A DNA stretch of 64,000 nucleotides from contig JALOBM010000001.1 in assembly GCA_023228285.1 (NCBI GenBank), forward strand, positions 1 through 64,000, in the 5' to 3' direction. The translations under genes were made by a program, and so were the position numbers. Below, piece by piece: positions 8,194 to 56,449 of this stretch. Position 1 is the stretch's first letter. Each line of letters opens with the position of its first letter. The notes beneath the pieces were generated by a model that worked only from the letters and a program-made list of their open reading frames with translations, was not told where the DNA came from and ran no database searches. The DNA comes from Candidatus Cloacimonadota bacterium. GTDB lineage: Bacteria > Cloacimonadota > Cloacimonadia > Cloacimonadales > Cloacimonadaceae.

Positions 8194-8257
8194 GAAGCTG
8201 ATATCAAGCCGTTATCAAACAGTGCTCACCCGATGATAACCCGATGATATCTGCTTC
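8194..8257 (+). repeat. 64-bp palindromic element, copy 1
   Basis: GAAGC and GCTTC form the ends. Inside lie GATATCA/TGATATC and GTTATCA/TGATAAC as nested inverted half-sites around a central AGTG-CT-CAC. It aligns without gaps to the five other copies in the window. It lies between divergent rplM and the GNAT gene, with CATTCCTCCTGTATA on its left flank. Confidence 0.85.
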
Positions 8258-8423
8258 AGCACGAGTGTAAGCAAAGCGGAATACCAGTCGTCCAAATCCA
8301 GATGAATGTCCTTCCCTCAGCACAGCAGTCACAGCCAATATCCGCAGGAGAAAACAGGGTTCAGACCAGTGTCATTAAGCTGTTAACGGCGGCGAAAAAC
8401 AAGCTGAATTCCCAAAATAGTAA

Positions 8424-8452
8424 TTGCCAAAATCACACAAAAGGCGTATTAT
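8424..8452 (+). promoter_or_regulatory. Sigma-70 promoter for the GNAT-DUF2156 pair
   Basis: TTGCCA at 8424-8429 and TATTAT at 8447-8452 are separated by exactly 17 bases. The start codon is about 30 bases further on, with GGAAAAGGA before it. Confidence 0.65.
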
Positions 8453-8482
8453 GTATGTAAAAGACAAAACTGGAAAAGGAAT

Positions 8483-8902
8483 ATGGAAGACATCTCCTAT
8501 CGTATTGTAAAAGAGACAGATGCAGCCCGAATCTTGGAATTGTACCGTGCAGCAGGATGGTGGCAAACGGACGAAAATCCTCAATACATCGAGACCGTGA
8601 AGGGCATCATCGCCAATAGTTTCTGCTTCGTAATAGCCAAGCGCGGAGAGGAAATCATCGGCATGGGGCGAGCTATATCCGACGGATTGAGCGATGCTTA
8701 TATCCAGGATGTGACGGTGTGGGAAGCAGAGCGGGGCAAGGGCATTGGCAAGGGCATCATCCGCGAATTGTTGCGCTATCTGAAAGAGCATAAACTGCAA
8801 TGGATAGGATTGATCAGCGAGCCTGGCTATGAAGCCTTTTACGGCAAACTGGGTTTCAATGTGATGAAATCCTACACTCCCTTTCTGTATTCGGAAGATT
8901 AA
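8483..8902 (+). CDS. GNAT family N-acetyltransferase
   Basis: 139 residues with the GNAT core. Motif A is visible as IQDVTVWEAERGKGIGKGII (acetyl-CoA pyrophosphate loop near residue 85), and motif B-like EPGYEAFYGKLGF near 118-130. Such enzymes move an acetyl group from acetyl-CoA to an amine; the acceptor cannot be told. The ATG at 8483 has AAAAGGA upstream. A DUF2156 gene follows after 3 bases; both are GNAT-fold proteins and probably cotranscribed. Confidence 0.88.
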   Translation: MEDISYRIVKETDAARILELYRAAGWWQTDENPQYIETVKGIIANSFCFVIAKRGEEIIGMGRAISDGLSDAYIQDVTVWEAERGKGIGKGIIRELLRYLKEHKLQWIGLISEPGYEAFYGKLGFNVMKSYTPFLYSED

Positions 8903-8905
8903 TAT

Positions 8906-9835
8906 ATGACTCCAGACCTTACTATGCCGGGGCTAAAAGCTCTGGACATCACCAATACGTTGATTCTGAGGGACTACCTTACCAAATATCCGCGGGAACA
9001 TTGTGATTATACCATTACAAATCTAATGGTATGGGGCAAGATCTACAACAACCACTACCTGATTTACAAAGATCGCCTGGTGATTGTGAATCCAAAATAC
9101 CAGTATATCCTCTTTCCGGTGGGGCCTTATCTGAATCCGGCAGAGCTCAAAGAGCTTGTTTTGATGTTTCGTCCCTACTTTCCGGAATCGCAGATCATTT
9201 TGTTTCCCCACGAATATTTCGAGCAGTATCCGGAAGTGCATGATGTGTTTGAGATATATGAAGATAGGGATTGGGCGGACTATGTTTACAGTGTGGAAAA
9301 TATGGTTCACCTTAGCGGTAAAAAACTGGCGAAAAAGAAGAACCTCATCTCTCAATTCAGGCGTGCATATCCAGAATATAAAGTGTTGAAAATGACGGAA
9401 GACCGCTTGAAATACATCCTGAGTTTCACACATAAATGGCGCCGGGAACGCAGTGCCGAAGGCATATATCTGATGACGGAGATCAAGGCGATCGAAAACA
9501 CACTGGAAGCTTGGCACAATCTGCCAGTGGAGGGGATCATCATTTGCCTGCACAACAAGATCGTCGCCTATTCCATCTTCAGTCCTCAGACCCAGGATAT
9601 GGTTACTGTGCATTTTGAGAAATTTGATCCCGAGAAAAAGGGATCGGCTCAGGTGATAACATGGGAGACGGCGCGCTATCTGGAAAACCGCTATAAATGG
9701 ATAAACCGCGAGCAGGACATCGGACTGGAAGGGTTAAGGCAAGCCAAGCTCAGCTATGTTCCGGATCGCTTTTCCCGCTTTTTTGGGTCCAGGCTAAAAG
9801 GAGATACAGTAGGGCGGTCAATGCCAGAAAACTGA
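8906..9835 (+). CDS. DUF2156 protein (phosphatidylglycerol lysyltransferase C-domain-like)
   Basis: 309 residues. The DUF2156 pattern is seen in CDYTITNLMVWGKIY near the start, the charged KKLAKKKNLISQFRRAYP in the middle, and NREQDIGLEGLRQAKLSY near the end. The family has two GNAT-like lobes related to aminoacyl-phosphatidylglycerol synthases. The role here is unknown; aminoacylation of a lipid or peptide is a guess. The last 86 bases overlap the end of the opposite-strand gene. The tail after SYVPDRFSRFF is longer than I expect for the family. Confidence 0.75.
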   Translation: MTPDLTMPGLKALDITNTLILRDYLTKYPREHCDYTITNLMVWGKIYNNHYLIYKDRLVIVNPKYQYILFPVGPYLNPAELKELVLMFRPYFPESQIILFPHEYFEQYPEVHDVFEIYEDRDWADYVYSVENMVHLSGKKLAKKKNLISQFRRAYPEYKVLKMTEDRLKYILSFTHKWRRERSAEGIYLMTEIKAIENTLEAWHNLPVEGIIICLHNKIVAYSIFSPQTQDMVTVHFEKFDPEKKGSAQVITWETARYLENRYKWINREQDIGLEGLRQAKLSYVPDRFSRFFGSRLKGDTVGRSMPEN

Positions 9836-10751
9836 GGACGAAAGCTGCAATGCGCCGGGGACGGGGGTTTAGCAGCATTTGCCAGATTATGGGCAGGCTA
9901 TCCGCATGTTGCCAGCGGTCGCGATAGTAGCGTAGAACTTTGTCCTGTCTGATCTCTAATAACTTGCCCAGGAGCATTATATGACGCTGGTGATACATTC
10001 TTCCGGCTTTGGTTCCGTCCAGATTGTAGTAAGAATAGCCATGATAATCAAATTCCGGTAGTTTGGCAGTAAGGGCACAAAAGCCTTTATCAAAGAGCTC
10101 CTGAGCCAGAGGATTCTTGGTAAGTTCTTGATATTTGTGCAAATGCAATAGAGTACTCATCATCCCGCTGAGTGAAAAGTAGGGTGTTTCCGCTGGGTAT
10201 TCCATAAACCAAATGCTGCTATCGGAAAGCGCTATGGAAAGATCCGCAACATCCGGATCCAGGCTGCGCAACATGTTTTCAGCGATGCCAAGTACTTCCA
10301 GATTCCGGTCCATGCCAGCGCGGTTTGCCAGGGCGTTCATACCTACGGACTGGGTGAGTGCGGATGCCCAGGGAGCCTTCTGATTGTACTTTGGATAATC
10401 GAAATCGTAGTATAGATAAGGGATGGAATCGCGAATAGATACCATATCCAGGAGTTTATCCGTAAGGGTGACAAAGTGTTCGGAACCTTCTCCCAGCAGG
10501 CGACGGTCATTTTCGTCCAGGGCTTCACTGGCGATGAAGAGGGCATTGTAGTGCTTTTCGCCGTCATTGTAGAGCTGCATTGGGATGTTCTGTTCATCCC
10601 GTACCGTCAATTGATTGAAGGGTCTACCGAAGATTGTGGCTGCCAGCTGTTCCGCCATACTGTATATCTTGGTTTCCGCCACTTGCCAGACTACGCTTAC
10701 AAAGAGCAGGGATACCACGCAGGCTATAATAATGATGTATTTTTTGGGCAT
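9750..10751 (-). CDS. Membrane-anchored D-glucuronyl C5-epimerase-like domain protein
   Basis: 333 residues with a hydrophobic segment at 4-22 and a second near 308-326, so both ends are membrane-inserted. The middle (about 125-295) resembles the C-terminal domain of glucuronyl C5-epimerases: PWASALTQSVGMNALANRAG, IWFMEYP, then the LPEFDYHGYSYYNLDG region and YHQRHIMLLGKLLEI. These enzymes act on uronic acids in polysaccharides, so a role in envelope glycan modification is plausible but unproven. It lies 3 bases after znuB. The gene ends inside the opposite DUF2156 gene. Confidence 0.6.
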   Translation of the reverse strand: MPKKYIIIIACVVSLLFVSVVWQVAETKIYSMAEQLAATIFGRPFNQLTVRDEQNIPMQLYNDGEKHYNALFIASEALDENDRRLLGEGSEHFVTLTDKLLDMVSIRDSIPYLYYDFDYPKYNQKAPWASALTQSVGMNALANRAGMDRNLEVLGIAENMLRSLDPDVADLSIALSDSSIWFMEYPAETPYFSLSGMMSTLLHLHKYQELTKNPLAQELFDKGFCALTAKLPEFDYHGYSYYNLDGTKAGRMYHQRHIMLLGKLLEIRQDKVLRYYRDRWQHADSLPIIWQMLLNPRPRRIAAFVLSFLALTALLYLLLAWTQKSGKSDPEHS

Positions 10752-10754
10752 GAC

Positions 10755-11543
10755 TTAGGTTCTTCTCCTTCTGATAATAAAGCTGGCGGCATATAATAGT
10801 GCTTGACATACAACTATCGTGGCGCCGGTGGGAAGATTTAAAGCAAAGGACAAGGCAAAACCTCCGAGAGCGGAGATAATGGCTACAATCACAGCAGTGA
10901 TGATGGCTGTGTGCAGTCTTTGTACCAAATTGAAGGCGATCACGGCGGGCAGGATCAATTGTGCGGTTACTAGGATGATGCCGGCACTTTTTAAGTTGAA
11001 GACGATATTTGCCGCCAATAGCAGATAAAACACTTTGTCCACAGCATCCGTGCGGATGCGAAACACACCAGACATTTCCGCATTGTAGCTAAGGTAAAAC
11101 AATTCTTTGTAAAAGAACATCACAAAAGCGATATTCAGAATATTCAGGATGCCCAGCGCCCACAGTTCATTGCCGGATATGAGCAGAACATTCCCAAAGA
11201 GGTAGCTGGAGAGGTCGAAGGTATAATTTCGGGAAAGAGAGATCAGAATGATACCCAAGGCCATGGAGAGGGAAAGAAAGATGGTGATGGTATTGGCTTC
11301 CTGGATCTTATGCTGTTTTGACAACCAAGAGATTCCCAGAGCAACGGCACACACAAAGATCAAGGCTCCCAGACTGAGGTTTATGCCGGTGATGATGGCG
11401 ATGGCAATGCCGGCAAAAGCTATGTGGGATAATGCTTCTCCCAGATATGAGATACGGCGCAGTGTAACATAGGGAGCAAAGACCGCAAGGGATATACCGC
11501 TCAGTAAAGCTCCGAAGAGCGCATTCAAGAGAAATCCCGGCAT
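10755..11543 (-). CDS. znuB: Metal ABC transporter permease (ZnuB-like)
   Basis: 262 residues of the ABC-3 permease family with about eight hydrophobic segments and the stretch YLGEALSHIAFAGIAIAI near residue 35. It would form the membrane channel for zinc or manganese. I take the ATG at 11543, which overlaps the znuC stop by one base (TGATG) and has AAAGGAC upstream, rather than the TTG one codon earlier. The metal is not settled by sequence. Confidence 0.92.
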   Translation of the reverse strand: MPGFLLNALFGALLSGISLAVFAPYVTLRRISYLGEALSHIAFAGIAIAIITGINLSLGALIFVCAVALGISWLSKQHKIQEANTITIFLSLSMALGIILISLSRNYTFDLSSYLFGNVLLISGNELWALGILNILNIAFVMFFYKELFYLSYNAEMSGVFRIRTDAVDKVFYLLLAANIVFNLKSAGIILVTAQLILPAVIAFNLVQRLHTAIITAVIVAIISALGGFALSFALNLPTGATIVVCQALLYAASFIIRRRRT

Positions 11544-12271
11544 CAATAGTCCTTTTCTATCAGGCGCACAGTGTCGCCAAAGGTTTTGTGGATGATTTCC
11601 GCATTCACCAGTTCAGAGTGATTGTGGTAGTGCAGACGGTGATTCAGGCAGATCAGGTAGTTGCAATATTCGCTGAGCGTATGCAGGTCGTGAGAGATGG
11701 TTATCACGGTCTTGCCGCTATCATTTAGCTTTTTCAGCAGTTCAAAAAAACTGCTTACGCCACTGCGGTCTATACCGGCTTCAGGTTCGTCCAGGATGAG
11801 GTACTTACTATCGGAAAGTATTGCGCGGGATAGTAATACACGTTGGAATTCGCCTCCGCTGAGGCTTCCGATCCGGGAAGAGGCTTTTGTATCGATGCCG
11901 CATTGCCGCATGGCATCCATTGCTTTTTGCTTGTGTTCTTTGCCGCATCTCCTGCCCCATCCCAAGGTTCCAGCAATGCCCATCAGAGAGATGTCCAGAG
12001 CGGTAGCGGGAAAGCTGCGGTCGTATTCTTCGCGTTGAGGTAGATAGCCGAAGCCATTGTTTTTCAGCCAGTTATCTCTGGGGATACCGTCTATGCTGAT
12101 GCTGCCTTCCTGGATATCCAACAAGCCTAGAATCAGTTTGATGAGGGTGGATTTTCCGGCTCCGTTGGGGCCGATGATGGCGGCGAATACTCCATCCGGG
12201 ATTTGGAGATTGATGTCTTCCAGAATGCTTTTGCCGCCGAGGCTGAACTGCAGGTCGCTTACTTGGATCAT
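11543..12271 (-). CDS. znuC: Metal ABC transporter ATP-binding protein (ZnuC-like)
   Basis: 242 residues: Walker A GPNGAGKST near residue 34, signature SLSGGEFQRVLLSRAI near 138, Walker B YLILDEPEAGID, and H-loop ISHDLHTLSEYC. It energises import by the ZnuB-like permease. It lies between znuA and znuB and is coupled to znuB by overlapping stop and start codons. Confidence 0.93.
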   Translation of the reverse strand: MIQVSDLQFSLGGKSILEDINLQIPDGVFAAIIGPNGAGKSTLIKLILGLLDIQEGSISIDGIPRDNWLKNNGFGYLPQREEYDRSFPATALDISLMGIAGTLGWGRRCGKEHKQKAMDAMRQCGIDTKASSRIGSLSGGEFQRVLLSRAILSDSKYLILDEPEAGIDRSGVSSFFELLKKLNDSGKTVITISHDLHTLSEYCNYLICLNHRLHYHNHSELVNAEIIHKTFGDTVRLIEKDY

Positions 12272-12302
12272 GTATAGCTCTTGGATACTATAGGATGGCT
12301 CA

Positions 12303-13235
12303 TCAGAATGCCTGTTTCATGGCATCCCAATTTTTCAGGATCAGTTCTGTGATGGTGGTAGCCTCGAAAGTGCTACCGATGGGATCCAGCGTGCCGATCT
12401 GCAGCTTGTATTCTTTGGCTAAAACTTCTGCGGATTTGGGATCCTGTTGGGGCTCCACAAATATGCGGCGCACACCGTGGTTGCGGATCTTTGTGCCCAG
12501 TTCAAGCAGTTCGCGAGGAGAGGGTTCTTTGCCCGGTGAGCTTTGCACCCAGCCCAGATACCGGATATCGTAATCGCGGCAGAAGTAATGGAAGCTATTG
12601 TGATATGTAATCAAGGCAGGCTCGTTGTATGTTTTGCGCTCGGTTCTGATCAGTTCATCAGCTGCGCTCAGTTCGCGGAAGATTTCATCGTAATTGTGAT
12701 TGATTAGCGGCACAAAATCGGTGAAGCGGGAACAAAGCTCTGTTTTTAGCTTTGTACTGAGCTTCATCATCATCTGCGGTGATGTCCAGAGATGAGGGTC
12801 TGTAGCCAGATGATCATGGTGATGCTCCCCGTCGTGGTTGTGTTGATGCATCAGTTGTTCACGCACTTGCTGCAGAGAATCCAAGGCGATCAAATCGCTG
12901 AGTAATAAAGAACAGTCGAGCAGTTTATCGGAAGCTTTGTCCAGGCTTTGTTTCATCATCTCTTCCAGTCCCATGCCGTTGATCACGATCAGTTCAGCTT
13001 TGTGAAGGTCTTTCAGATGAGAAGGCTGAGGGCTGAAGGAATGCACCGAGGCATTGGGCGGGATCATGCTTCTCACTTCGACAGCATCACCCACCATTTG
13101 CTTTAGCAGCAATTCGTAGGGATAGATGGATGTAAGGATCAAAGGCTTGGTCTCTGTCTTTTTTTGATCGATGGGAGCTTTGCAGGCACCCAGGATAAAT
13201 AGCAAGAGGATTAGGAAATAGGCTGCTTTTTTCAT
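12303..13235 (-). CDS. znuA: Metal ABC transporter substrate-binding lipoprotein (ZnuA-like)
   Basis: 310 residues. The N-terminus MKKAAYFLILLLFILGAC is a lipoprotein signal (lipobox LGAC). The body is the cluster A-I binding fold, with the His-rich loop HQHNHDGEHHHDH near residues 127-140, typical of zinc-specific members. PHLWTSPQMMMKL and ALITYHNSFHYF carry the expected metal-binding histidines. It delivers Zn2+ to the ABC permease encoded downstream. The start follows AAGGAGAAATT. Confidence 0.92.
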   Translation of the reverse strand: MKKAAYFLILLLFILGACKAPIDQKKTETKPLILTSIYPYELLLKQMVGDAVEVRSMIPPNASVHSFSPQPSHLKDLHKAELIVINGMGLEEMMKQSLDKASDKLLDCSLLLSDLIALDSLQQVREQLMHQHNHDGEHHHDHLATDPHLWTSPQMMMKLSTKLKTELCSRFTDFVPLINHNYDEIFRELSAADELIRTERKTYNEPALITYHNSFHYFCRDYDIRYLGWVQSSPGKEPSPRELLELGTKIRNHGVRRIFVEPQQDPKSAEVLAKEYKLQIGTLDPIGSTFEATTITELILKNWDAMKQAF

Positions 13236-13246
13236 AATTTCTCCTT

Positions 13247-13287
13247 GAAAAAGCTCATCCGGGATCTATCGCAGAATCCGGAAAAGC
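13247..13287 (-). promoter_or_regulatory. Dyad in the pepA-znuA gap
   Basis: On the minus strand AGCT-TTT-CCGGAT and ATCC-CGG-ATG-AGCT face each other across about 10 bases, followed by TTTTTC. It could end pepA transcription as a weak terminator or act as a metalloregulator operator before znuA. The sequence alone does not decide. Confidence 0.35.
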
Positions 13288-13302
13288 TAAATGAGAATAG
13301 GA

Positions 13303-14781: not shown

Positions 14782-14807
14782 TATGTCTCCTTAATCTATA
14801 TGAATTC

Positions 14808-17828: not shown

Positions 17829-17835
17829 ATAATTC

Positions 17836-20894: not shown

Positions 20895-21985
20895 AGAAGC
20901 TCCGTTATAACGGCGTTTGAGATGAAGAACGCATCGGGCAGCAAGCGTAATCCGGAAGCATCCAGATGGATAAATCCCAGTTCTTCCAGTTTTCTGATTC
21001 CATGTTCCCGGCCTTTTGTAAAGCATTTGCCAAAGCGGGCTTGGTATTCGGCATAATCCAAGCCTTTTACGAGGCGCAACCGCATCATTATATAGTCGCT
21101 CTCTTCCTGGGCAGATTCATCGGTATCGCCGCCGGTTCTGCCTGAAGCGATATATTGGCTGTAGAGCTTGAGATCGGCGGGATTCTGATAGCGTCTGCCC
21201 TTGTAATATCCGGAAGCAGATGCTCCCCAGGCGAGGCATTCCCGAGATTCCCAGTATAGCAGATTGTGGCGGGATTCCCGGCCGGGCAGGGCAAAGTTCG
21301 AAATCTCATATTGGATAAAGCCGTGTTCCTCAAGCAAATCCCGGATTAGCTGATATTGACGGTTGCTTTCATCGTCATCGGGCAGGAGGGGAATATCGGC
21401 TGCCAGGGGACAGTCCTCTGCCAATTCCAGCAGGTAGCAGGAGATGTGCTCAAAGGGTATGTCCAGCAGGCGGCTCAAGCTTTCACACACTTTCTTGTTA
21501 TGGCTATTGGGCAGACCGTAGATGAAATCCGCAGAGATATTGGTGAATCCGGCATCCCGCAGGATTTGTAGTTTTTGGGGGATGTCTGCGGCTCGATGCC
21601 TGCGACCGAGGTAGAGCAGATCATCATCCAACATGGATTGCACTCCTAAAGACAGTCTGTTTACGGGAGTATCTGCCAGTTCACTAGCAAAAGACTTGGT
21701 GACCTGGATGGGATTCAGCTCCATGGTAATCTCTGCTCCTGGAAGCAGTTCCAAGCTATTCACAATAGTTCTAATCTGTTGTGCAGAGAGCAGCGAAGGA
21801 GTGCCACCGCCAAAGTAAATGGAACTTAGCGGCGGGATGCCATTTTGTCGCCACAGCTCCTTCTCTCGCAGCAGAGTGGCAAAGTAGTCGTCAAAATCCT
21901 TACGATTATAGTTATCGGCAAAGAAGCTGCAATATGGGCAGCGGCTCAGGCACCAAGGGATGTGAATATAAAGCCCTAGTGTCAT
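20891..21985 (-). CDS. hemW: Radical SAM protein HemW (HemN-like)
   Basis: 364 residues: YIHIPWCLSRCPYCSF with the CxxxCxxC cluster ligands near residue 12, YFGGGTPSLL, NRLSLGVQSM, ISADFIYGLP and the HemW C-terminal domain (YEISNFALPG, WGASASGYY). It is a heme chaperone family, not true coproporphyrinogen oxidase. No good ribosome site is visible before the ATG at 21985, although the protein begins correctly. Confidence 0.9.
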   Translation of the reverse strand: MTLGLYIHIPWCLSRCPYCSFFADNYNRKDFDDYFATLLREKELWRQNGIPPLSSIYFGGGTPSLLSAQQIRTIVNSLELLPGAEITMELNPIQVTKSFASELADTPVNRLSLGVQSMLDDDLLYLGRRHRAADIPQKLQILRDAGFTNISADFIYGLPNSHNKKVCESLSRLLDIPFEHISCYLLELAEDCPLAADIPLLPDDDESNRQYQLIRDLLEEHGFIQYEISNFALPGRESRHNLLYWESRECLAWGASASGYYKGRRYQNPADLKLYSQYIASGRTGGDTDESAQEESDYIMMRLRLVKGLDYAEYQARFGKCFTKGREHGIRKLEELGFIHLDASGLRLLPDAFFISNAVITELL

Positions 21986-22039
21986 GTCAGGTTTGAAGGG
22001 GCAATCTCCGTATTGCCACAGCGACCGAAGGGAACTTTA

Positions 22040-22174
22040 GAATCATGCTCCTCATTCCCTTTGTTCGATCCAGTGTTGAAGCTGATATCAAGGTGTTATC
22101 ATCCTGTGCTCACCCGATGATAACCCGATGATATCAGGTTCAAGTATCGATAATCCCAGGAGGAATGAAGCTTC
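22040..22174 (+). repeat. 64-bp palindromic element, copy 2, with extended flanks
   Basis: The core is 22078-22141. Nested half-sites GATATCA/TGATATC and GTTATCA/TGATAAC are intact; the right end reads GGTTC instead of GCTTC. Flanks on both sides match those of the copy at 40.2 kb when one is reverse-complemented, including TATCGATACTTGAACC and an ATTCC-type motif, giving a unit of about 135 bases. It lies in the 268-base gap between hemW and lepB, which holds nothing else visible. Confidence 0.85.
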
Positions 22175-22253
22175 TGAATCATCGGCAGAAGTATCAGGGA
22201 GATTGGAGTTTGGCAGCGCAACATCAAAACAACATTCATGCCTGTACGAGTCA

Positions 22254-23174
22254 CTAGCGAGCCAGTCTGAATATCCTGTTCCACCGGATGTGGGGTGTGT
22301 CGTATAGTTTGTTGTATTCTATGCCTTTGGACCAGAAAATCAGCCAGGGAGACCCGGTGATATCGGTGCGGTCCAAAAAGCCCCAATAGCGGCTGTCTTC
22401 GCTCACATCGCGGTTGTCTCCCATTACAAAGTATTTGCCTTCCGGCACTTTGATGGGGCCGAACCAATCGCGGTTGAAGCGGGTATTGGCAGCGCTGGAA
22501 TCTGCATCTACGCGATAGAGATCATACCAATTTGAATAGCTGACGGGATCCATCAAACCGGGCTTGAAGGTGCGTTCTGTAACCACTCGGGGAGCTTGCG
22601 GCGGGCTGGGATACGCCTCGCCGTAGCACTCGTAGCCGCGGTTGAATTCTTCTCCATTGATATATACTATCTTGTCGCGGATTTCGATGGTGTCTCCGGG
22701 CATGCCGATCACACGCTTCACTATGTTCTTGCGGGCGTAGTAAGTGATGTGGAAAGCAGTTAAGGGAAAGCGCGAGAAGGATTGGGTTTTGTTGATGTAG
22801 ATCGGATGGAAGATCTTGATGAATTGATCCTTGTAATCGGGGTGTTCAGGCGTGTTTTCTTCGATCTTGGGATAGCGGAAAGTTACGATGTCTTCCCGCT
22901 TGGGGTCGGTAAAGTAGTACTTCAGCTTGTTTGCTACCAGAAAGTCTCCGGTCAATAGAGTCTTTTCCATCGATGAAGAGGGGATCATAAAGTTCTGGAA
23001 AGTGTAGTTGCGTATGATCATAGCTACTACAAAGGCAAAGAGGATGGCTTCGGCCCAGTCCTGGAACTGTGGTTTGCGTTTGTGGAACTTTCGATCGGTT
23101 GGCAGAGGGCTGCGGCTGGGCATTTTAGCCAGATTTTCGCGGTTGTTCTTTACTATTTTCATGCGTTCTTTCAT
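22254..23174 (-). CDS. lepB: Signal peptidase I
   Basis: 306 residues. A single hydrophobic segment near 40-57 is followed by FMIPSSSMEKTLLTGDFL with the catalytic serine, VKRVIGMPGDTIEI with the general-base lysine, and box E GDNRDVSEDSRYWG. It cleaves signal peptides at the outer face of the inner membrane. A large insert between the Ser and Lys boxes matches the long form found in Bacteroidota-like bacteria. It is 13 bases after the YfhO gene. Confidence 0.95.
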   Translation of the reverse strand: MKERMKIVKNNRENLAKMPSRSPLPTDRKFHKRKPQFQDWAEAILFAFVVAMIIRNYTFQNFMIPSSSMEKTLLTGDFLVANKLKYYFTDPKREDIVTFRYPKIEENTPEHPDYKDQFIKIFHPIYINKTQSFSRFPLTAFHITYYARKNIVKRVIGMPGDTIEIRDKIVYINGEEFNRGYECYGEAYPSPPQAPRVVTERTFKPGLMDPVSYSNWYDLYRVDADSSAANTRFNRDWFGPIKVPEGKYFVMGDNRDVSEDSRYWGFLDRTDITGSPWLIFWSKGIEYNKLYDTPHIRWNRIFRLAR

Positions 23175-31004: not shown

Positions 31005-31109
31005 AATAAGCATTATGAGCGGATTGAACAGCATCAAATTGAGTGAATACAGATCCGGGTAAAGAAAGAGGGTAATTCCGTGCAATCTGCGTACTATTCA
31101 AGCAGTGCC

Positions 31110-31173
31110 GAAGCTGATATAAAGGCGTTATCATCCAGTGCTCACTCGATAATAACGGGATGATATCTGCTTT
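31110..31173 (+). repeat. 64-bp palindromic element, copy 3
   Basis: Same length and half-site order as the other copies, with GATATAA for the first GATATCA and the right end GCTTT. The centre is AGTGCTCACT, a perfect inverted centre. It lies between divergent hppA and xseB. Confidence 0.85.
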
Positions 31174-31373
31174 TAAACAGGATAATATAGAGAGGTAGAA
31201 CGCTGTGGATTACCGCTTAAACAGCCGAAATGATTCAATATGAAGCTTCTGCAATATAAAAGTTTCAACATCAACTTCGAATATAGTATCGTATGACTAC
31301 TAATCTTTGCTGCTATTTCCAGAAATATCAGCCCTGCAATTATCTGTATTTGAACAAAGAATGAATTTTTTGT

Positions 31374-39481: not shown

Positions 39482-40138
39482 ATGAAATACGTTCTTATCA
39501 TCACGATGCTTCTCATCATTCTGCTGGGTATCTTTACATGCCCGGAAAAGAGCTCTATAGCTACAGATACCTACAGAGTAGTGCGGGTAGTGGATGGAGA
39601 CACATTCATCGCTTACATCGACGGCAAGGACGAGCGCATCCGTCTGATCGGAGTGGATACCCCGGAATCTGTGCATCCAAACAAAGACGTGGAGCACTAT
39701 GCTCTGGAGGCAAGCGATTATCTGAAAACCTTACTGAAGGATGAAAGGGTATATTTCAAGTACGACCAAAGCAACAGTGCTACTAACCACAAAGACCGCT
39801 ATGACAGGACATTGGCTTATGCATATCGCGCCAGTGACTCCCTCTTCATAAACGCCGAAATCATCAAGCAAGGCTATGGCTTTGTCTATACTTCCTATCC
39901 TTTCACTTATCTGGAGGATTTTCTGAAGCTGGAACGTGATGCCCGGATGCAACAGCTCGGTCTTTGGGGCGAAGCGGAAGACACTGTGGCGTCATCTGAT
40001 AGCCTGGTCTGGTTCAATCCCGGAAGTAGTAAATACCATCGCAACAGCTGCCGCTACACAAAGGAAGGTTCTCTGCCCATTCCACTCTCCGAGGCTTTAC
40101 TAAAGGGCTATGAGGCATGCAAGGTCTGCAAACCATAG
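39482..40138 (+). CDS. Thermonuclease-family nuclease, exported
   Basis: 218 residues from the ATG at 39482, where a hydrophobic signal or anchor begins (YVLIITMLLIILLGIF). The TNase domain has VVDGDTFIAYIDG, RIRLIGVDTPES, DRYDRTLAYAY and QLGLWG with the Arg/Glu residues of the family. The tail KYHRNSCRYT and ACKVCKP is a small Cys-bearing module often found at the C-terminus of such nucleases. It probably acts outside the cytoplasm. Confidence 0.88.
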   Translation: MKYVLIITMLLIILLGIFTCPEKSSIATDTYRVVRVVDGDTFIAYIDGKDERIRLIGVDTPESVHPNKDVEHYALEASDYLKTLLKDERVYFKYDQSNSATNHKDRYDRTLAYAYRASDSLFINAEIIKQGYGFVYTSYPFTYLEDFLKLERDARMQQLGLWGEAEDTVASSDSLVWFNPGSSKYHRNSCRYTKEGSLPIPLSEALLKGYEACKVCKP

Positions 40139-40188
40139 TGACTCGTCGCTGAACTCCAATTTTGCAGATACTTCTACAGAACGATGCA

Positions 40189-40322
40189 AAAGCTTCATTC
40201 CCCCTTTGGTTTATCGATACTTGAACCTGATATTATCGGGTTATCATCGAGTGAACACAGGATGATAACGGCTTGATATCAGCTTCAACACTGTATCAAA
40301 CAAAGGGAAAGAGGAGGAATTC
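40189..40322 (-). repeat. 64-bp palindromic element, copy 4, with extended flanks
   Basis: The core is 40223-40286, in the opposite orientation to copies 1-3. Its flanks match those of the copy at 22.1 kb over both sides (CAACACTG, AACAAAGGGAA, TATCGATACTTGAACC), so the whole unit is about 134 bases. It lies between the convergent nuclease and thiN genes. The rest of that gap has no gene; a TTGACA at about 40372 has no credible gene downstream. Confidence 0.85.
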
Positions 40323-40431
40323 ACAAGTTGCCCTCGGTTGCTGTGGTATTACAGATATTCCCATACCTAGCTTGACATGACCCTAGATAGTATATACGGC
40401 AAACACCGGTTCTATATATAGTCCGCAAGCC

Positions 40432-45913: not shown

Positions 45914-45994
45914 GCAGGAACTTGGGCTGAAGCTGCTTAACAGCCCAAAAGCATATGGAATGAATAATCCTTCCCCTGAGAATCATCCTCTGCT

Positions 45995-46058
45995 GAAGCA
46001 GATATCATCGTGTTATCATCGAGTGACCACTGCTTGATAACGGCTTTATATTGGCTTC
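45995..46058 (-). repeat. 64-bp palindromic element, copy 5
   Basis: Opposite orientation to copies 1-3. One outer arm is degenerate (TATATTGGCTTC on the plus strand) but the GTTATCA/TGATAAC inner pair and the AGTG-CAC centre are kept. Its right flank reads ACAGGAGGAATAG, the inverse of the left flank of copy 1. It lies between divergent comEB and aroA. Confidence 0.8.
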
Positions 46059-46388
46059 GGTACCACTTGATGTATACAGGAGGAATAGCACACATAAGGT
46101 TGAACGTTCCGCTTCGCTTCACTGTTGAACGGCCTTCGGCCTGTTGAATGCTCAGGTTTTGCCTTCGCTGTTGAACGGTGTTGCAGTTCTGCAGTTGGGG
46201 GTTTGTACCTCGTGCCTCAGACACGTCTTGGTCAGTTAAACTTCCCACTTTCGATCGTGATAATTTGTGAAGATCAGTGTAAATCTGTGGACAGAAAGAA
46301 GCATCTCGCACAAAGCGGATTAGACTATATTTCAGGCGGAGATGTGGTATATTTTTGCCCATGAAGAGACGAATGAAGGATACCATCA
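46059..46388. other. Repeat-rich gap upstream of aroA
   Basis: 330 bases without a credible gene. It includes short inverted pieces (GGCCTTCGGCC), GTTGAACGG repeated three times between about 46104 and 46178, and a 66-67 base repeat at 46178-46244 shared with 56.2 kb. The last 100 bases before aroA carry no clear promoter; the start has GAAGGA upstream. Confidence 0.5.
46178..46244 (-). repeat. Second dispersed repeat, copy at 46.2 kb
   Basis: The reverse complement of this stretch matches 56238-56304 at about 58 of 66 positions by hand alignment. It contains GTCTGAGGCAC, a near palindrome, and ends CCAACTGCAGAAC. The two copies each lie on the same gap as a 64-bp palindromic element. Confidence 0.75.
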
Positions 46389-47612: not shown

Positions 47613-47621
47613 ATAGAGGTG

Positions 47622-49055
47622 TTATTCTTTAGTTTGCGGAGGGGCAAACTGCTGTTGTACCTGGTTTATGACGGCATCCAGAAAGAGATCGCCCTGTTCT
47701 ACTACATCAAAAGGCTTGAATCCCAGATACTTGTCCCACTGACTGAGAATGTAGTCGTGACTCACTATGCGGTAAACTCTATCCAATTCCAAGGGTTTAT
47801 TATCGATGCGGAAGTCGGTGGTAGAATCCTGCAGCCATGAGGCTTCACTTACAGTCATGATATCGTAGGGCTTTGTTTCCAATATCTGCAGGTTTTTGGT
47901 CTGGGCGGTCAAGATATCTCGGCCGTAACAGGAGAAAAACACTATGGTATTGCCAAAAGGGATGCATTCATGCAGATCGCGCAGAGTAATCTCGCCTTGG
48001 GGCAGATTGCGCCTGAAACCGCCGTTGTTTACCATGGCGAGTTCGGTTTCCGGATACTCTTTCACCAAAGATTGAGCGACCCACATAATGCTGGGCGTAA
48101 CGCTGAATTTGTCGGAGATAAAAGGCTCCGGTAGAATGCCAACTGTTTTACTGAGTTTGCGCTCCATCTCACCTACACTTTCCTCCAGAAAGCTCGCCAG
48201 ATCGCTCTGATAGTCTGCAGGGGGCTGGGACAGCGGGATCAAGCGATTGGAAAAGTGCGTGATCCGGTCTTGCCGAAGCTTTAGATCAACTTGACCCAAC
48301 GATTGTAAGTGACTGCCGGTGGATACTATATAGATGCCGTTAACTACTTGTGCGGGTTCAAAAGCCAGATGCGAATGGCCGCCGATGATCATATCAACTC
48401 GCTCGTCCAATTGAGTGGCGAGCAGGCTGTCCGCTTCCCAGCCGTTGTGACTGAGGAGTACCAGCAGATCGCTCTTGGCATCTGCTTCATCCAGTACCCG
48501 GTCGATGGCCTCTTTGTAAGGCAAGATGTTCAGGTTTGCCACGTTTTCTGGTTTCACCCTTTCGGGCAGACTGTCTATAGTGAGGCCTATCACTGCGATT
48601 CTGGTATGTCCCTTGTGGAAGACTTGATAAGGCGCATGGCCAAAACTGCTGCCATCAGCATTCAGTAAGTTTGCGCTGAGGAAGGGAAATTTGGAGCGCT
48701 CCACCAATGCCCGGGAGTGAACCTCGGAGACATCGAACTCGTGGTTGCCAAAAGTGGCGGCATCAAGATCGAGTCGTTCAAATACTTCCAATACGGCTCC
48801 GCCCTTCAGAGCATCGTATTCCATGGAGGAGAAGATGGAGCCGGTTTGCATATCTCCGGCATCCAGCCATAATGTGTTCTTATGACCCTTGCGGGCTTCG
48901 TCCAGATGGTATTCCAAGGCAAGGTATCCGCCTTGGCCGTTGCGGGCAGGTTCGTAGGCGGCGTGACTGTCGTTTGTGTGCAGTATTCTCAGGTTTTGGG
49001 CACAGGCAGTGAGTAACAAGAATAGAAATAGGCAGAAGTAGAGGCTATATTTCAT
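47622..49055 (-). CDS. 5'-nucleotidase/UshA-like metallophosphatase lipoprotein
   Basis: 477 residues with lipoprotein signal MKYSLYFCLFLFLLLTAC. The metallophosphatase domain has ILHTNDSHA, WLDAGDMQTGS, TFGNHEFD, LLSHNGWEADSLL and IIGGHSHLAF. The C-terminal nucleotidase domain has MVNNGGFRRNLPQGEITLRD and VSHDYIL. It likely hydrolyses nucleotides in the periplasm. It ends 9 bases from the convergent aroA gene and shares ATGA with kdsB. Confidence 0.92.
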   Translation of the reverse strand: MKYSLYFCLFLFLLLTACAQNLRILHTNDSHAAYEPARNGQGGYLALEYHLDEARKGHKNTLWLDAGDMQTGSIFSSMEYDALKGGAVLEVFERLDLDAATFGNHEFDVSEVHSRALVERSKFPFLSANLLNADGSSFGHAPYQVFHKGHTRIAVIGLTIDSLPERVKPENVANLNILPYKEAIDRVLDEADAKSDLLVLLSHNGWEADSLLATQLDERVDMIIGGHSHLAFEPAQVVNGIYIVSTGSHLQSLGQVDLKLRQDRITHFSNRLIPLSQPPADYQSDLASFLEESVGEMERKLSKTVGILPEPFISDKFSVTPSIMWVAQSLVKEYPETELAMVNNGGFRRNLPQGEITLRDLHECIPFGNTIVFFSCYGRDILTAQTKNLQILETKPYDIMTVSEASWLQDSTTDFRIDNKPLELDRVYRIVSHDYILSQWDKYLGFKPFDVVEQGDLFLDAVINQVQQQFAPPQTKE

Positions 49056-49789: not shown

Positions 49790-49811
49790 CTCTCATCTCC
49801 CCGGCAGAGGC

Positions 49812-51662: not shown

Positions 51663-51671
51663 ATATGGCTG

Positions 51672-52280: not shown

Positions 52281-52644
52281 TACTATAGATTACGCTGCTG
52301 CGTTCGGATTCGTAGATTTCCACTTCTTTGATCTTCGCAGGATAATTGACCAAGCCTCTTTCCATTTCTTTGTAGATGATGCGTGCCAGATTCTCGGAAG
52401 TGGGATTTTGCCCTTCCAGTAGGGGCATATCGTTCAGATATTCGTGATCAAATTGGTCCAGGATGCAGGTCAGAATGTCTTTGATGACGCCATAATCCAG
52501 GCCCATCCCGATCTCATCCAGCGTTTCACACTCAATTCCCACCCGCACTTTCCAATTGTGTCCGTGCAGGTTTGAACAGGCTCCCTGGTAACCGCACAGC
52601 CGGTGTGCGGCGGAAAATTGATCACTCACGTTCAATAAAAACAT
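52273..52644 (-). CDS. queD: 6-carboxytetrahydropterin synthase QueD
   Basis: 123 residues from the ATG at 52644, since AGGAG lies 5 bases upstream; a GTG two codons earlier overlaps the ribosome site. Zinc histidines are in SAAHRL and NLHGHNW, the catalytic Cys in GACSNLHGH, and LDQFDHEYLND, NPTSENLA, YESERSSVIY complete the PTPS pattern. First steps of queuosine synthesis; no queE or queC nearby. Confidence 0.93.
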   Translation of the reverse strand: MFLLNVSDQFSAAHRLCGYQGACSNLHGHNWKVRVGIECETLDEIGMGLDYGVIKDILTCILDQFDHEYLNDMPLLEGQNPTSENLARIIYKEMERGLVNYPAKIKEVEIYESERSSVIYSNA

Positions 52645-52652
52645 ACTCACTC

Positions 52653-53585
52653 CTAAAAATACTTTTTGCGGATGAAGATAAAGACTAAAAGCATCGAGAG
52701 CAACACCGAAAATCCCATCACTATGAAGAATGCGTGGGGATGGGATTGTAGGGGTAGAATCAGATTCATACCGTAGATGCTGGCTATCAGTGTGGGCAGT
52801 GCCAGGATGATGGTGATCGAAGTAAGAAACTTCATCACCACATTCAGATTGTTCGATATGATCGAGGCAAAAGCATCCATCATGCCACTGAGGATGCTGC
52901 TGTGGATGATCGCCATCTCGATAGCCTGTTTGTTTTCGATGATCACATCCTCGATGAGATCTTCAGCCTCCGGATCCTCCAGCAGCCAGCGAGAGCGCTG
53001 CATCCGTTCCAGAATGATCTCGTTGCTCTTCAAAGATGTATTGAAAAAAACCAGCGATTTCTCCATCCGGAGCAAGCGGATTAGCTCCTTATTGCGCATA
53101 GATTGGTGAAGTTCGCTTTCGATATTGTTTGTGCGCCGGTTGATCTCTTTCAAAAACTTTAGATAGTAGATGGCCGTGCGCAGATTGATGGCCAGAATGA
53201 AGCTTTGTTGGGTGATGTTGAAGGCTTTGTGCTTGCCGTCCAGATACTGCGTGAGTATCTCATTTTCGTAGAAAGACACAGTGATCACCTTGTCTTCCAC
53301 AACGATGATCCCCAGAGGTGCAGTGGCAAAGCTGACGCTGGCAGAACGATGACGGTAATACAACGGTACACGCAGGATGATGAGCATTGCCCCTTCGTCA
53401 TGCTCCATACGTGAGTTCTCATCGGCATCCTGAAGGTCTGTGATAAAGTCTTCCGGGAGGTCATATTTATCCAATACAGTTTTCACTTCTTCCGGGTCAG
53501 GGTTTTCCAGATGCACCCAAAAGGATTCATCCCAATTGAGTGCAGGGACAAAGCGCTGACCGGCAATCTTGTAATACAGAATCAA
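52653..53585 (-). CDS. corA: Magnesium/cobalt transporter CorA
   Basis: 310 residues: a long cytoplasmic N-domain, then two C-terminal helices with the YGMN motif near residue 268 and a basic end (IRKKYF). TTG start at 53585 with a perfect AAAGGAGGT 7 bases before it; no ATG fits. It heads the corA-queD-engB-mnmG-kdsB-ushA unit. Confidence 0.94.
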   Translation of the reverse strand: MILYYKIAGQRFVPALNWDESFWVHLENPDPEEVKTVLDKYDLPEDFITDLQDADENSRMEHDEGAMLIILRVPLYYRHRSASVSFATAPLGIIVVEDKVITVSFYENEILTQYLDGKHKAFNITQQSFILAINLRTAIYYLKFLKEINRRTNNIESELHQSMRNKELIRLLRMEKSLVFFNTSLKSNEIILERMQRSRWLLEDPEAEDLIEDVIIENKQAIEMAIIHSSILSGMMDAFASIISNNLNVVMKFLTSITIILALPTLIASIYGMNLILPLQSHPHAFFIVMGFSVLLSMLLVFIFIRKKYF

Positions 53586-53721
53586 TTCCGATACCTCCTT
53601 TCTTTATCATGTGATGCCAGTTTCCCAAAGGCGATACAATTTGGCAAGGTATTTTCATCTTGAGGCAATGCACGGGGCACAACCATGCCTTCACAATCTA
53701 TATAGCGGACACAACTGGGAC

Positions 53722-53749
53722 AAAAAATGGCGCACCCCAAGGATGCGCC
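53722..53749 (-). terminator. Rho-independent terminator of the rrf2-nifS-nifU operon
   Basis: On the minus strand GGCGCA and TGCGCC form a 6-pair stem (extended by flanking bases) with a GC-rich loop, followed by ATTTTTTG. It lies 23 bases after the nifU stop and separates it from corA. Confidence 0.8.
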
Positions 53750-53772
53750 GCTTGCTTATGGATGTGCTTTAT

Positions 53773-54396
53773 TTAGGGGAAATTGATCTGGATCGTTTTC
53801 ACTTCGGGATACTTTTCCAGGTGTTCATGAATCTCTTCTGCTACGTTGTCCCGCCAACTGTCGAAGCTCATCATATTCAGGTCGATCAGCACTTCTCCAT
53901 CCATAAAACCGATATACTTCACCATTTTCAGGCTTACGATGTCTTCACCCACCTGGGGATAGATGATCTTTTTCAGCTCTTCCAGGATGGTCTCTTTGCC
54001 AAAGTTTGGCACTTCTTTCAAACCGTGGGCAATCTCGTAATTCGAGATCGCAGTCTGCAGAGTATCAGCCGCCAATACGGAGCAATGCACTTTCACCGGA
54101 GGCAGACCGTCCAGGGCTTCCATGGCATCACGCCAGGTGATCTTTTTCGCCTCATCCAGGCTTTTGCCTTTGGCCAGATCGGTGATGATGGAGGCGGTGG
54201 CAATGTTTGACGCACAACCATAGGACAGGAAGCTGACGTCTTCTATTACTTTGTTCTCTTCATTTACTTTCAGATACACAGTCACCTGATCGCCGCAAGC
54301 GGGACTGCCTTCCGTGGCAGTGGCATCGGGATTTTCCATTTTGCCCACATTGTGAGGGTGCATAAAGTGGTCTAAAACCTTCTGTGAGTATTGCAT
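53773..54396 (-). CDS. nifU: IscU/NifU-type scaffold fused to a DUF59-like domain
   Basis: 207 residues. Residues 1-128 are the IscU fold with ligands C34 (ACGD), C61 (YGCAS) and C105 (VHCSV) and the assisting D36. From about 138 a second domain (EDIVSLKMVKYIGF, PEVKTIQINF) resembles MIP18/DUF59 domains as in SufT but lacks their Cys. Standard NifU C-terminal CxxC is absent. It assembles 2Fe-2S/4Fe-4S clusters with the NifS next to it. Confidence 0.85.
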   Translation of the reverse strand: MQYSQKVLDHFMHPHNVGKMENPDATATEGSPACGDQVTVYLKVNEENKVIEDVSFLSYGCASNIATASIITDLAKGKSLDEAKKITWRDAMEALDGLPPVKVHCSVLAADTLQTAISNYEIAHGLKEVPNFGKETILEELKKIIYPQVGEDIVSLKMVKYIGFMDGEVLIDLNMMSFDSWRDNVAEEIHEHLEKYPEVKTIQINFP

Positions 54397-55584
54397 TTAT
54401 CTCTCCTGTTTCTTCATAGCATTGTAAAGCGGGCTGCGCTGGCGCAATTCTGCAGTGATCTCCGCCAGTTTATCCACTGTAAAATCCAGGTCTTCCTTTG
54501 TGTTGTAGCGGTTGACGGTAAATTTCATCGAACCATGCGATTGCACGTGGCTCTTGCCGATTGCCATCAGTACGTAGTTTGCTTTCAATCCCTGAGACGC
54601 ACAGGCGGAACCGGTGGCAACCGTGATGCCATGCATGTCCAGCATCATCGTAATGGCTTCGCCTTCAATGTAGTCGATGGAGATATTGATATTGTGCGGA
54701 GCGCGGCCTTCGCCTTCGGCGCCGTTCAACTCGATATACTCAATCTTTTCCTTTAGACGCTCCAGCAGATGGTTCGAAAGCTCCCGCAAGTGCCTGATAC
54801 CTCCATCCAGATCTGCAAATGTAAGCTCCACCGCCTTGGCAAAGCCGGCGATCAGTGCGATGGAAAGACCTCCGGTCTGCAATCCGTCCACTCGTTTTAC
54901 TCCGTGGATTACTTGCCCCAGTTTCGTGCCTTTGCGCACATACAGTGCGCCAATGCCCTGTGGACCGTGAATCTTGTGTGCAGACACGCTCAGGGTATCG
55001 ATGCCATAGTCATTCACGTTCAAGGGTATTTTCCCGTAGGCTTGCCCGGCATCCACATGGAAATAGACCTTGTTTGGTGCCCGTGAGAGTATTTCGTGAA
55101 TCTCTTTCAAGGGCTGAATCGTGCCCACCACGTGGTTTACAGCAGTGGTCATAAATAGTACTGTATCAGGACGTATCACGTCTCTTAGCTGATCTAGGTC
55201 GATGCGGGCTTTGCTGTCTGTTTCAAGATAGCTTACCTCAAAACCTTTTTTCTCCAGCCAGGCGGCATTGGTGAGCAGATCGGGATAATCCACCACGCTC
55301 ACGATAACATGACCTCGCTTCAAGGATGCGGCAAGGCCCTTGATGGCGATGTTGTTTGCTATTGTTCCGCCAGAGGTAAAGTGAATTTCCTCTGGACTTG
55401 CACCCAGCGAATGTGCCACAATCTGACTAAAGCCTTCCAAGGCGTCGTTAGCGCTTTCACCTGTGCTGATGAAGCTGCCGGGAAACCAAAACTTTTCCCG
55501 GAAATAAGGCATCATGGCATCCAATACTTCCGGAGCCATGGGGCTGCTTACGCAGTTATCCAAATAGATTGAACCGGGCTTCAT
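54397..55584 (-). CDS. nifS: Cysteine desulfurase (NifS/IscS)
   Basis: 395 residues from the ATG at 55584, which shares ATGA with rrf2 and has AAGGAAAG upstream. PLP lysine in SVSAHKIHGPQG near residue 205; catalytic Cys loop GSACASQG near 327; YFHVDAGQAYGK and NNIAIKGL are other family marks. It supplies sulfur to the IscU scaffold encoded one base later. Confidence 0.95.
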   Translation of the reverse strand: MKPGSIYLDNCVSSPMAPEVLDAMMPYFREKFWFPGSFISTGESANDALEGFSQIVAHSLGASPEEIHFTSGGTIANNIAIKGLAASLKRGHVIVSVVDYPDLLTNAAWLEKKGFEVSYLETDSKARIDLDQLRDVIRPDTVLFMTTAVNHVVGTIQPLKEIHEILSRAPNKVYFHVDAGQAYGKIPLNVNDYGIDTLSVSAHKIHGPQGIGALYVRKGTKLGQVIHGVKRVDGLQTGGLSIALIAGFAKAVELTFADLDGGIRHLRELSNHLLERLKEKIEYIELNGAEGEGRAPHNINISIDYIEGEAITMMLDMHGITVATGSACASQGLKANYVLMAIGKSHVQSHGSMKFTVNRYNTKEDLDFTVDKLAEITAELRQRSPLYNAMKKQER

Positions 55585-55991
55585 TTGTCTTTCCTTTGCC
55601 ATATTTTCAGTATATCCTTCAATGTGTAGGAACTGAAAACCTGCTGTAGTTCATTTTGTATTTCGTTGAAGAATGAAGATAAAGTGCAGGAATCTCCCAA
55701 ACAATGCTCTCTGGAGGTATCCACACAAGCAGTATTGAAACTATAGTCTTCCACGGCTGCTAATACATCTGCAAAACTAATCTCTTCAGGCTTTTTTGCC
55801 AGAGCATAACCTCCCAGACTGCCGGGGCTACTATTCACCAATCCGGCAGTTTTGAGCATCGCCATAAGGTGCTCAATATACTTCTTGGGCAAATTCTGGG
55901 CTTCACAAATTTTCTGTGCCGACACATGGCCTTGCTCCTGGATTTCGAGGAGTACCCGTAAAGCATACTCTGTCTTGGTATTCAGCGCCAT
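55581..55991 (-). CDS. Rrf2-family regulator (IscR-like)
   Basis: 136 residues: N-terminal winged helix (TEYALRVLLEI, PKKYIEHLMAMLKTAGLV, GSLGGYALAK) and three cysteines in ACVDTSREHCLGDSC near 91-105 that can bind an Fe-S cluster. It probably senses cluster status and controls the operon it heads (rrf2-nifS-nifU), and possibly the divergent hydrogenase. Confidence 0.9.
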   Translation of the reverse strand: MALNTKTEYALRVLLEIQEQGHVSAQKICEAQNLPKKYIEHLMAMLKTAGLVNSSPGSLGGYALAKKPEEISFADVLAAVEDYSFNTACVDTSREHCLGDSCTLSSFFNEIQNELQQVFSSYTLKDILKIWQRKDK

Positions 55992-56038
55992 TTCATTCTC
56001 CTTTGTTTATCTACGGCTGTTTCTTGTTTCTATAATAC

Positions 56039-56067
56039 ATACTAATTCTCTATGCTATATCTGTCAA
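56039..56067 (-). promoter_or_regulatory. Sigma-70 promoter of the rrf2-nifS-nifU operon
   Basis: TTGACA (56067-56062) and TAGTAT (56044-56039) on the minus strand with a 17-base spacer. The rrf2 start is 48 bases below the -10. No operator could be defined with certainty. Confidence 0.65.
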
Positions 56068-56147
56068 GTATGATTTTGGCTTATGATGATTGTTCGAATC
56101 TCCAAAACGGAAGGCAGTACAGGTTGGGGTGAAGGCGACCTGTCTAG

Positions 56148-56213
56148 CCGCAGTTCCGATCCGTAACGGAGCTTTCCGCAGCTCCGATCTGTAACGGAGG
56201 ATTCCGATCCTCC
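56148..56213. repeat. Tandem 24-base repeat with hairpin
   Basis: Units at 56148-56171 and 56176-56199 (CCGCAG, TCCGATC, GTAACGGAG) differ at two positions, with a 28-base period. GGAGGAT-TCCG-ATCCTCC at 56196-56213 is a perfect 7-pair hairpin without a T-run. Confidence 0.65.
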
Positions 56214-56237
56214 AAAAGAAAAGAGAAGTAGTATCGG

Positions 56238-56304
56238 AAAGTTCAACTGACAAAGACGTGCCTGAGGCACAAGCTACAAACCTCCAACTGCAGAACCGCA
56301 GCAC
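56238..56304 (+). repeat. Second dispersed repeat, copy at 56.2 kb
   Basis: Matches the reverse complement of 46178-46244 at about 58 of 66 positions by hand alignment. GTGCCTGAGGCAC is a perfect palindrome around one base. It lies 82 bases from a 64-bp palindromic element. Confidence 0.75.
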
Positions 56305-56385
56305 TGTAGCACTGTAGCACCGTTCAGCTACGAAAGGGGAACAGCCATCTGCGTTCCATTCATCCTCTATGCATCAAGTCGTGAT

Positions 56386-56449
56386 GAAGCAGATATCATC
56401 GGGTTATTATCGAGTGAGCACTGCTTGATAACAGCTTGATATCAGCTTC
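56386..56449 (-). repeat. 64-bp palindromic element, copy 6
   Basis: All four GATATC/TTAT half-sites are present with one change (GTTATTA on the plus strand); ends GAAGC and GCTTC pair fully. Opposite orientation to copies 1-3. It lies between divergent rrf2 and hydA, 120 bases before the hydA promoter. Confidence 0.88.

What the first reader, a model, noticed from the sequence alone, without database searches (positions are those of the whole stretch)
8194..56449. Six copies of a 64-bp near-palindromic intergenic element
At 8194-8257, 22078-22141, 31110-31173, 40223-40286, 45995-46058 and 56386-56449 the same 64-base element occurs with no gaps in alignment. Half-sites run GAAGC, GATATCA, GTTATCA, then AGTG-CT-CAC at the centre, then TGATAAC, TGATATC, GCTTC. 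Dyad symmetry runs through the centre at position 32.5. Symmetry, constant length and intergenic position suggest a REP/MITE-like element or a repeated protein-binding or RNA-folding unit. I do not know it as a described family.
Basis: seen in the sequence. Interest (0 to 1): 0.75.

Follow-up and report, generated by a model that had tools for sequence, protein, structure and literature searches.

The report
Evenly spaced intergenic DNA dyad sites
The six repeats belong to a set of more than 120 look-alike sites spread at roughly even distances between genes of a Cloacimonadota bacterium, and related bacteria carry the same layout in different DNA words, which suggests a chromosome-organising landmark rather than an ordinary repeat.

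Summary
The 64-base element is the centre of a dyad of about 124 bp built from 11-bp units. The genome holds 134 copies (<=3 mismatches; reversed control 0). None of 50 copies studied lies inside a called gene. Copies are spaced evenly: 70 intervals, minimum 5.4 kb, mean 12.8 kb, CV 0.45. A sister species (G034) has 32 copies in 400 kb, minimum 5.9 kb; 0 of 20,000 random placements into its own gaps match this. Words differ between species while layout and some sites persist: at 4 of 6 window sites G034 has a copy in the corresponding intergenic region, no more alike than unrelated copies. Other genera carry such dyads with other words. In one single-contig genome two word families keep 14 kb apart (P about 0.001), but a third does not. 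Dyad pairing shows no covariation, so this is a duplex site, not a hairpin. Two window copies sit inside MITE insertions. The one RAYT found lies beside a different repeat. Best reading: a duplex site bound as a phased array by an unidentified protein, for chromosome organisation. Main rival: a mobile repeat with target immunity.

The parts
8164..8287 (-). E1: full dyad element (reported core 8194-8257), between L13 ribosomal protein gene (-) and a GNAT gene (+); G034 has a copy in the corresponding gap
22048..22171 (-). E2: full dyad element (core 22078-22141), between signal peptidase and HemN-like genes
21976..22257 (.). ~282-bp MITE with ends CTAGTGTC../..CACTAG carrying E2 in its middle; the genes abut (0 bp) in G034
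31080..31203 (-). E3: full dyad element (core 31110-31173), upstream of H+-pyrophosphatase (-) and of an exonuclease VII small-subunit gene (+); G034 and G039 have copies upstream of the H+-pyrophosphatase
40193..40316 (+). E4: full dyad element (core 40223-40286), between convergent SNase and thiamin pyrophosphokinase genes
40135..40386 (.). ~252-bp MITE of the same family carrying E4 (one mismatch in each end word); gap is 9 bp in G034
45965..46088 (+). E5: full dyad element (core 45995-46058), between a deaminase gene (-) and an EPSP-synthase-family gene (+); G034 has a copy in the same gap
56356..56479 (+). E6: full dyad element (core 56386-56449), between Rrf2 regulator (-) and Fe-hydrogenase (+) genes; G034 has a copy in the same gap

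Best explanation
The element is a site in double-stranded DNA. Each half is three to four tandem 11-bp units, one per helical turn, and the halves meet head to head. A protein (not identified) probably binds as a phased, two-fold-symmetric array along one face of the DNA, touching a base-specific box and, through the W-S-S linker, groove width or bendability, once per turn. I infer that the bound sites mark the chromosome every 5-20 kb between transcription units as loop anchors, domain boundaries or topological insulators. Shown: duplex-type conservation, 11-bp units, intergenic placement, minimum spacing, words shared within a species and different between species at shared sites. Inferred: the protein, and the architectural role.
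For: Spacing: G000 70 intervals, min 5395, CV 0.45; G034 30 intervals, min 5929, CV 0.41; uniform null CV about 0.95, with 0 of 20,000 simulations reaching the observed CV for G000 contig C1 or for G034. Random choice among G034's own gaps: 0 of 20,000 reach the observed minimum or CV. G022 (another genus): 28 intervals, min 4878. G001 single contig: families A (36) and B (13) together have min 10,543, and no B lies within 14 kb of an A, P 0.00015 by rotation and 0.00115 by random B. Duplex code: linkers -19,-18,-17 are W,S,S in 100 of 100 halves while base identity is about 50/50; G034 keeps W,S,S at -8,-7,-6 in 30 of 30 copies (found with the G000 model, which favours W and S there). No covariation. 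Few relics in G034's 400 kb: 15 of 15 full-element hits on C12 stay from cut-off 0 to 40 and 15 of 17 on C58, control 0. Copies in matching G000/G034 sites are 0.47-0.55 identical, other cross-species pairs 0.52-0.56 on average, within G000 0.70-0.77.
Against: No reader protein was found and no binding or domain data exist. Word family C of G001 (6 places) has 2 within 88 and 513 bp of an A site. Some copies ride on a MITE, so part of the spread is transposition. Elements occupy the six largest gaps of the window (once the Pfam-supported gene at 8906-9835 that my finder missed is counted), so 4 of 6 shared sites is weaker evidence than it looks. A half-element scan finds some hits above the control maximum away from known elements: 5 in the window, at least 12 on C12, 4 on C58, which could be relics or chance. 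One G000 copy (L243) has a damaged centre. The 50 copies studied matched the box pattern exactly and are 50 of 134, so box conservation is biased (linkers were unconstrained). Unit phase and number differ in G022.
Confidence: 0.5

Rival explanations
1. A non-autonomous mobile element (MITE or foldback type) whose arms are tandem transposase-binding units; cis target immunity of Mu/Tn7 type would forbid insertion within about 5 kb of an existing copy, and gene conversion would homogenise words.
For: A 252-282-bp MITE subfamily with terminal inverted repeats carries the core; E2 and E4 are missing from otherwise matching neighbourhoods in G034; immunity would give hard-core spacing.
Against: The arms are in the middle of that MITE, not at its ends; half-site search gave 14 forward and 26 reverse matches against 11 and 15 for the control, and the four that I read are full elements with altered centres; full-element hits in G034 separate cleanly from background; copies without these MITE ends at matching sites in two species whose proteins are 55-93% identical there; two different word families avoid each other. 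Transposase families other than Y1_Tnp were not searched for.
Confidence: 0.25
2. Dedicated strong DNA gyrase sites, one per supercoiling domain.
For: The E. coli gyrase motif is 130 bp, symmetric, with arms of 10.75-bp GC periodicity (PMC6379681, passages read); our element is about 124 bp with W/S period 11-11.5 in G000 and G034.
Against: Words are far more specific than the degenerate gyrase motif; unit phase relative to the dyad and array length differ between genera (G022 is one unit shorter).
Confidence: 0.12
3. A hairpin acting in RNA or as a cruciform: terminator, RNA-stability element or REP/RAYT substrate.
For: Strong dyad, well above slid controls; near-perfect hairpins in G022; 3 of 6 window copies fold with z below -4.
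Against: Pairing equals shuffled expectation, no covariation; pairing avoided at -19,-18,-6 (10-12% against about 50% expected) and in G034 at -7 (3%) and -6 (10%); E3 and E5 fold no better than shuffles; 17 of 50 copies lie between divergent genes; no Rfam match in the window at the gathering cut-off; RAYT beside another repeat.
Confidence: 0.05
4. Operators of one large regulon.
For: Many copies lie upstream of genes; dyad and box conservation look like an operator.
Against: 10 of 50 copies lie between convergent genes; neighbouring genes in the window are unrelated; even spacing is not expected of a regulon.
Confidence: 0.05

Closest known systems
REP/BIME elements and REPINs with RAYT transposases (E. 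coli, Pseudomonas)
   Same: Extragenic, palindromic, >100 copies, species-specific words
   Different: No RAYT linkage here, longer, built of 11-bp units, evenly spaced, pairing not maintained
Dispersed chromosome-organising sites (matS/MatP, SBS/SlmA, NBS/Noc; recalled)
   Same: Short dyad sites scattered on a chromosome and read by one protein
   Different: These sites are far longer, occur throughout the contigs with a minimum spacing, and change words between species
DNA gyrase strong sites (Mu SGS; E. coli gyrase motif, PMC6379681)
   Same: About 124-130 bp, symmetric, helically phased arms
   Different: Specific words; phase and length vary between genera
parC of plasmid R1 bound by ParR (11-bp direct repeats; recalled)
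   Same: Tandem 11-bp units, one per turn, suited to a protein array
   Different: Here inverted halves, >100 dispersed sites; no ParR or ParM searched for
MITEs and foldback elements
   Same: A subfamily is a true MITE; arms with tandem subrepeats resemble foldback ends (recalled)
   Different: Most of the 50 copies lack these MITE ends; layout holds across word families

Membership tests
REP/RAYT | Y1_Tnp (RAYT) gene flanked by the repeat | tested here: not met
   One PF01797 match (30 bits) in G000, beside a different repeat by eye; nearest listed element on that contig about 12.5 kb away
REP/RAYT | Hairpin pairing maintained | tested here: not met
   No covariation; pairing avoided at linkers
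MITE | Terminal inverted repeats and empty sites in relatives | tested here: inconclusive
   Met for E2 and E4; not seen for E1, E3, E5, E6
Transposon ends (Mu/Tn7-like) | Half-elements flanking transposase genes | tested here: inconclusive
   Few half-sites, near the control count; some weak half-like hits; transposase families not searched
Gyrase strong site | About 130 bp, dyad, 10.5-11 bp W/S phasing with fixed phase | tested here: inconclusive
   Length and period fit G000 and G034; phase and array length differ in G022
Gyrase strong site | Gyrase cleavage or binding | not testable with these tools
   Needs an experiment
Dispersed chromosome-organising site | Scattered between genes over the chromosome, not confined to one regulon | tested here: met
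Dispersed chromosome-organising site | Dedicated reader protein and effect on folding | not testable with these tools
   None identified
Structured RNA (Rfam) | Match to a known family | tested here: not met
   0 matches in the window at the gathering cut-off

The most novel reading that the evidence does not exclude
Cloacimonadaceae chromosomes carry a ruler-like series of architecture sites, inverted arrays of 11-bp units with a minimum spacing of 5-10 kb, whose sequence words change in concert from species to species while the layout stays. It would be a dispersed, co-evolving landmark system with no bacterial counterpart known to me, perhaps a distributed centromere-like or loop-anchor system.
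Probability: 0.35. Interest if true: 0.93.

Novelty: categorically new. Interest (0 to 1): 0.85.

Why it matters
Bacterial supercoil and loop domains of about 10 kb are usually described as stochastic, without fixed sequence borders (recalled). A clade with fixed, evenly spaced, specifically built sites would make it directly testable whether sequence can set domain size. Concerted word change at shared sites would also be a new case of co-evolution between a reader and hundreds of sites.

Tried and rejected
RAYT substrate: rejected. RNA or cruciform hairpin: rejected on missing covariation. Spread outside Cloacimonadota: exact-pattern hits in a Desulfobacteraceae MAG and in one IMG/VR contig score like, or little above, reversed controls and far below true copies, so chance. 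Other genus members with the G000 words: no match in 9 of 12 genomes and 1 marginal match in G039; the layout was then found with other words in some of them. De novo statistic: in G044, G042, G014 and the order and class genomes G050, G057, G103, G121 nothing rose clearly above controls, with little DNA sampled; G032 had one hit above its controls (42.5 against 33.5 and, N runs apart, 38.75; L209:18793) that I did not follow; G038 was only just above (37.75 against 35.25). In G001 period 11 gives 12 hits at or above 38, against 0-7 for eight other periods but 2-18 for mirror controls, so that statistic alone is not clean; words A, B and C were confirmed by pattern search with control 0. Element polarity against gene direction in the 21 codirectional pairs: 9 same, 12 opposite, counted by eye. 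Family C of G001 breaks the spacing rule.

Full report
Observation. The six copies are real and stand far apart from anything else in the window. Pattern search of the whole genome G000 (2.06 Mb, 90 contigs) finds 134 places with up to 3 mismatches and 124 with up to 2, control 0. I fetched and compared 50 of the 134; these match the box pattern exactly, so boxes are conserved by choice, but the linkers were free.

Anatomy. Conservation reaches about +-62. From the dyad outward: GTGnnCAC at the centre, then boxes GTTATCA and GATATCA each followed by a W-S-S-n linker, then two weaker units in the same 11-bp phase, then a pyrimidine-rich tract (purine-rich on the other side). At -19,-18,-17 all 100 halves are W,S,S although A/T and C/G are each near 50/50. 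The two halves are usually opposite at linkers: pairing 10% at -19 and 12% at -18 against 50% expected. This may descend from an asymmetric ancestor, but it recurs in G034 at -7 and -6 (3% and 10%, 30 copies). Tested as a hairpin on the 50-row alignment, pairing is 65.6% against 65.3% in shuffles, and no measure stands out from the shuffles, though all exceed the slid versions. Two of six window copies fold no better than shuffles, three fold with z below -4. I conclude that the duplex, not a hairpin, is conserved in this genus.

Place. None of 50 copies lies inside a called gene: 17 divergent, 21 codirectional, 10 convergent, 2 at contig edges (own simple gene finder, which missed at least one real gene, 8906-9835). 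In the window they occupy the six largest gaps once that gene is counted.

Spacing. A covariance model without base pairs lists 150 scored rows in G000 (a cap, both strands counted), which I merged by hand to 125 places; 70 intervals within contigs have min 5395, mean 12.8 kb, CV 0.45. Intervals up to 30 kb occur, some perhaps because copies beyond the cap are missing. Assembly breaks at repeats could hide short intervals in G000, but the long contigs of G034 (200 kb each read) give 15 and 17 copies with min 5929 and CV 0.41. Choosing the same numbers of G034's own gaps of at least 100, 150 or 200 bp never matched this in 20,000 trials each; 31 of 32 copies fell in called gaps.

Relatives. With the G000 words at up to 2 mismatches, 2 of 124 phylum genomes match, G000 and G034. 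Its words differ but the 11-bp layout is the same. Further diverged copies appear in G039 (3 in 20 kb) and G038 (2 clear, 1 weak in 80 kb). A search for dyads with 11-bp direct periodicity finds arrays with other words in G035, G036, G040, G041, G010, G022 and G001. G022 has 80 forward matches to its word; 28 intervals from the 56 listed places I used have min 4878. The array in G022 is about one unit shorter, with another W/S phase.

Sites kept, words changed. Gene order of the window is largely kept in blocks in G034. E1, E5 and E6 have a G034 copy in the same gap, and E3 has one upstream of the same H+-pyrophosphatase gene although the other neighbour differs. E2 and E4 do not, and their gaps are 0 and 9 bp there. 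The matching copies are no more alike (0.47-0.55) than unrelated cross-species pairs (0.52-0.56), while copies within G000 average 0.70-0.77. Words have therefore changed together within a species.

Mobile part. E2 and E4 are the centres of insertions of about 282 and 252 bp with CTAGTG-type ends. Eighteen of the 50 fetched copies were aligned as this subfamily; 7 of 50 show both ends with at most one mismatch and 6 more show one end at the expected distance. The core is therefore spread in part by a MITE. This keeps the immunity rival alive at about 0.25. A half-element scan also finds 5 hits in the window, at least 12 on C12 and 4 on C58 above the control maximum and away from elements, unexplained.

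Several words in one chromosome. In G001 (one contig of 2,246,820 bp) family A has 36 places, B 13, C 6. A and B together never come closer than 10.5 kb, and A-B pairs not closer than 14 kb (P 0.00015 and 0.00115). The listed A and B sites are sparse (mean 46 kb, CV 0.87), so here it is the exclusion, not an even spacing, that is shown. This argues that exclusion does not depend on the word. Family C does not obey: two of its six places are 88 and 513 bp from an A site. C may be something else, or the rule may be weaker than it looks.

Comparison. E. coli gyrase recognises a symmetric 130-bp motif with 10.75-bp periodic arms (PMC6379681, passages only), a good match in size and period but not in word specificity or in constancy of phase. 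Full-text searches that might have shown earlier descriptions (listings only, open-licence papers) showed none; subscription papers are not covered. REP/RAYT was tested and not met.

Judgement. Solid: the family, its anatomy, the spacing in G000 and G034, and the species-specific words. Inferred: a protein array and a role in chromosome organisation (0.5).

Noticed in passing
L065:189-839 (G000:C46): One RAYT-like gene (216 aa, Y1_Tnp) with, by eye, a separate repeat around ACGTGCCAGAGGCACGAGGT on both sides, apparently its own REP-RAYT pair.
   Followed up: partly
window 21976-22257 and 40135-40386: A MITE with CTAGTG-type ends; its end supplies the predicted start codon of the HemN-like gene at 21985 and the stop codon of the SNase gene at 40138.
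   Followed up: partly
G034:C12 near 56316 (in L139): A synteny break between G000 and G034 falls at an element (block ending at window 19927 joined to block starting at 47622).
   Followed up: no
L206:299 (G022), L200:261 (G010), L176:18298 and L177:1400 (G041): Second word families of 11-bp inverted arrays in genomes that already have another word.
   Followed up: no
L209:18793 (G032) and L202:2282 (G014): Possible 11-bp-unit arrays with GC-rich words in further genera; the first is above its controls, the second is not.
   Followed up: no
G001 1843336 and 2122172: Family C arrays lie 513 and 88 bp from family A arrays, against the spacing rule.
   Followed up: partly
G000 contig ends (for example C4:6, C42:213, C63:182, C66:214): About 15 contigs start within 500 bases of an element in the list, so the assembly breaks at these repeats.
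   Followed up: no
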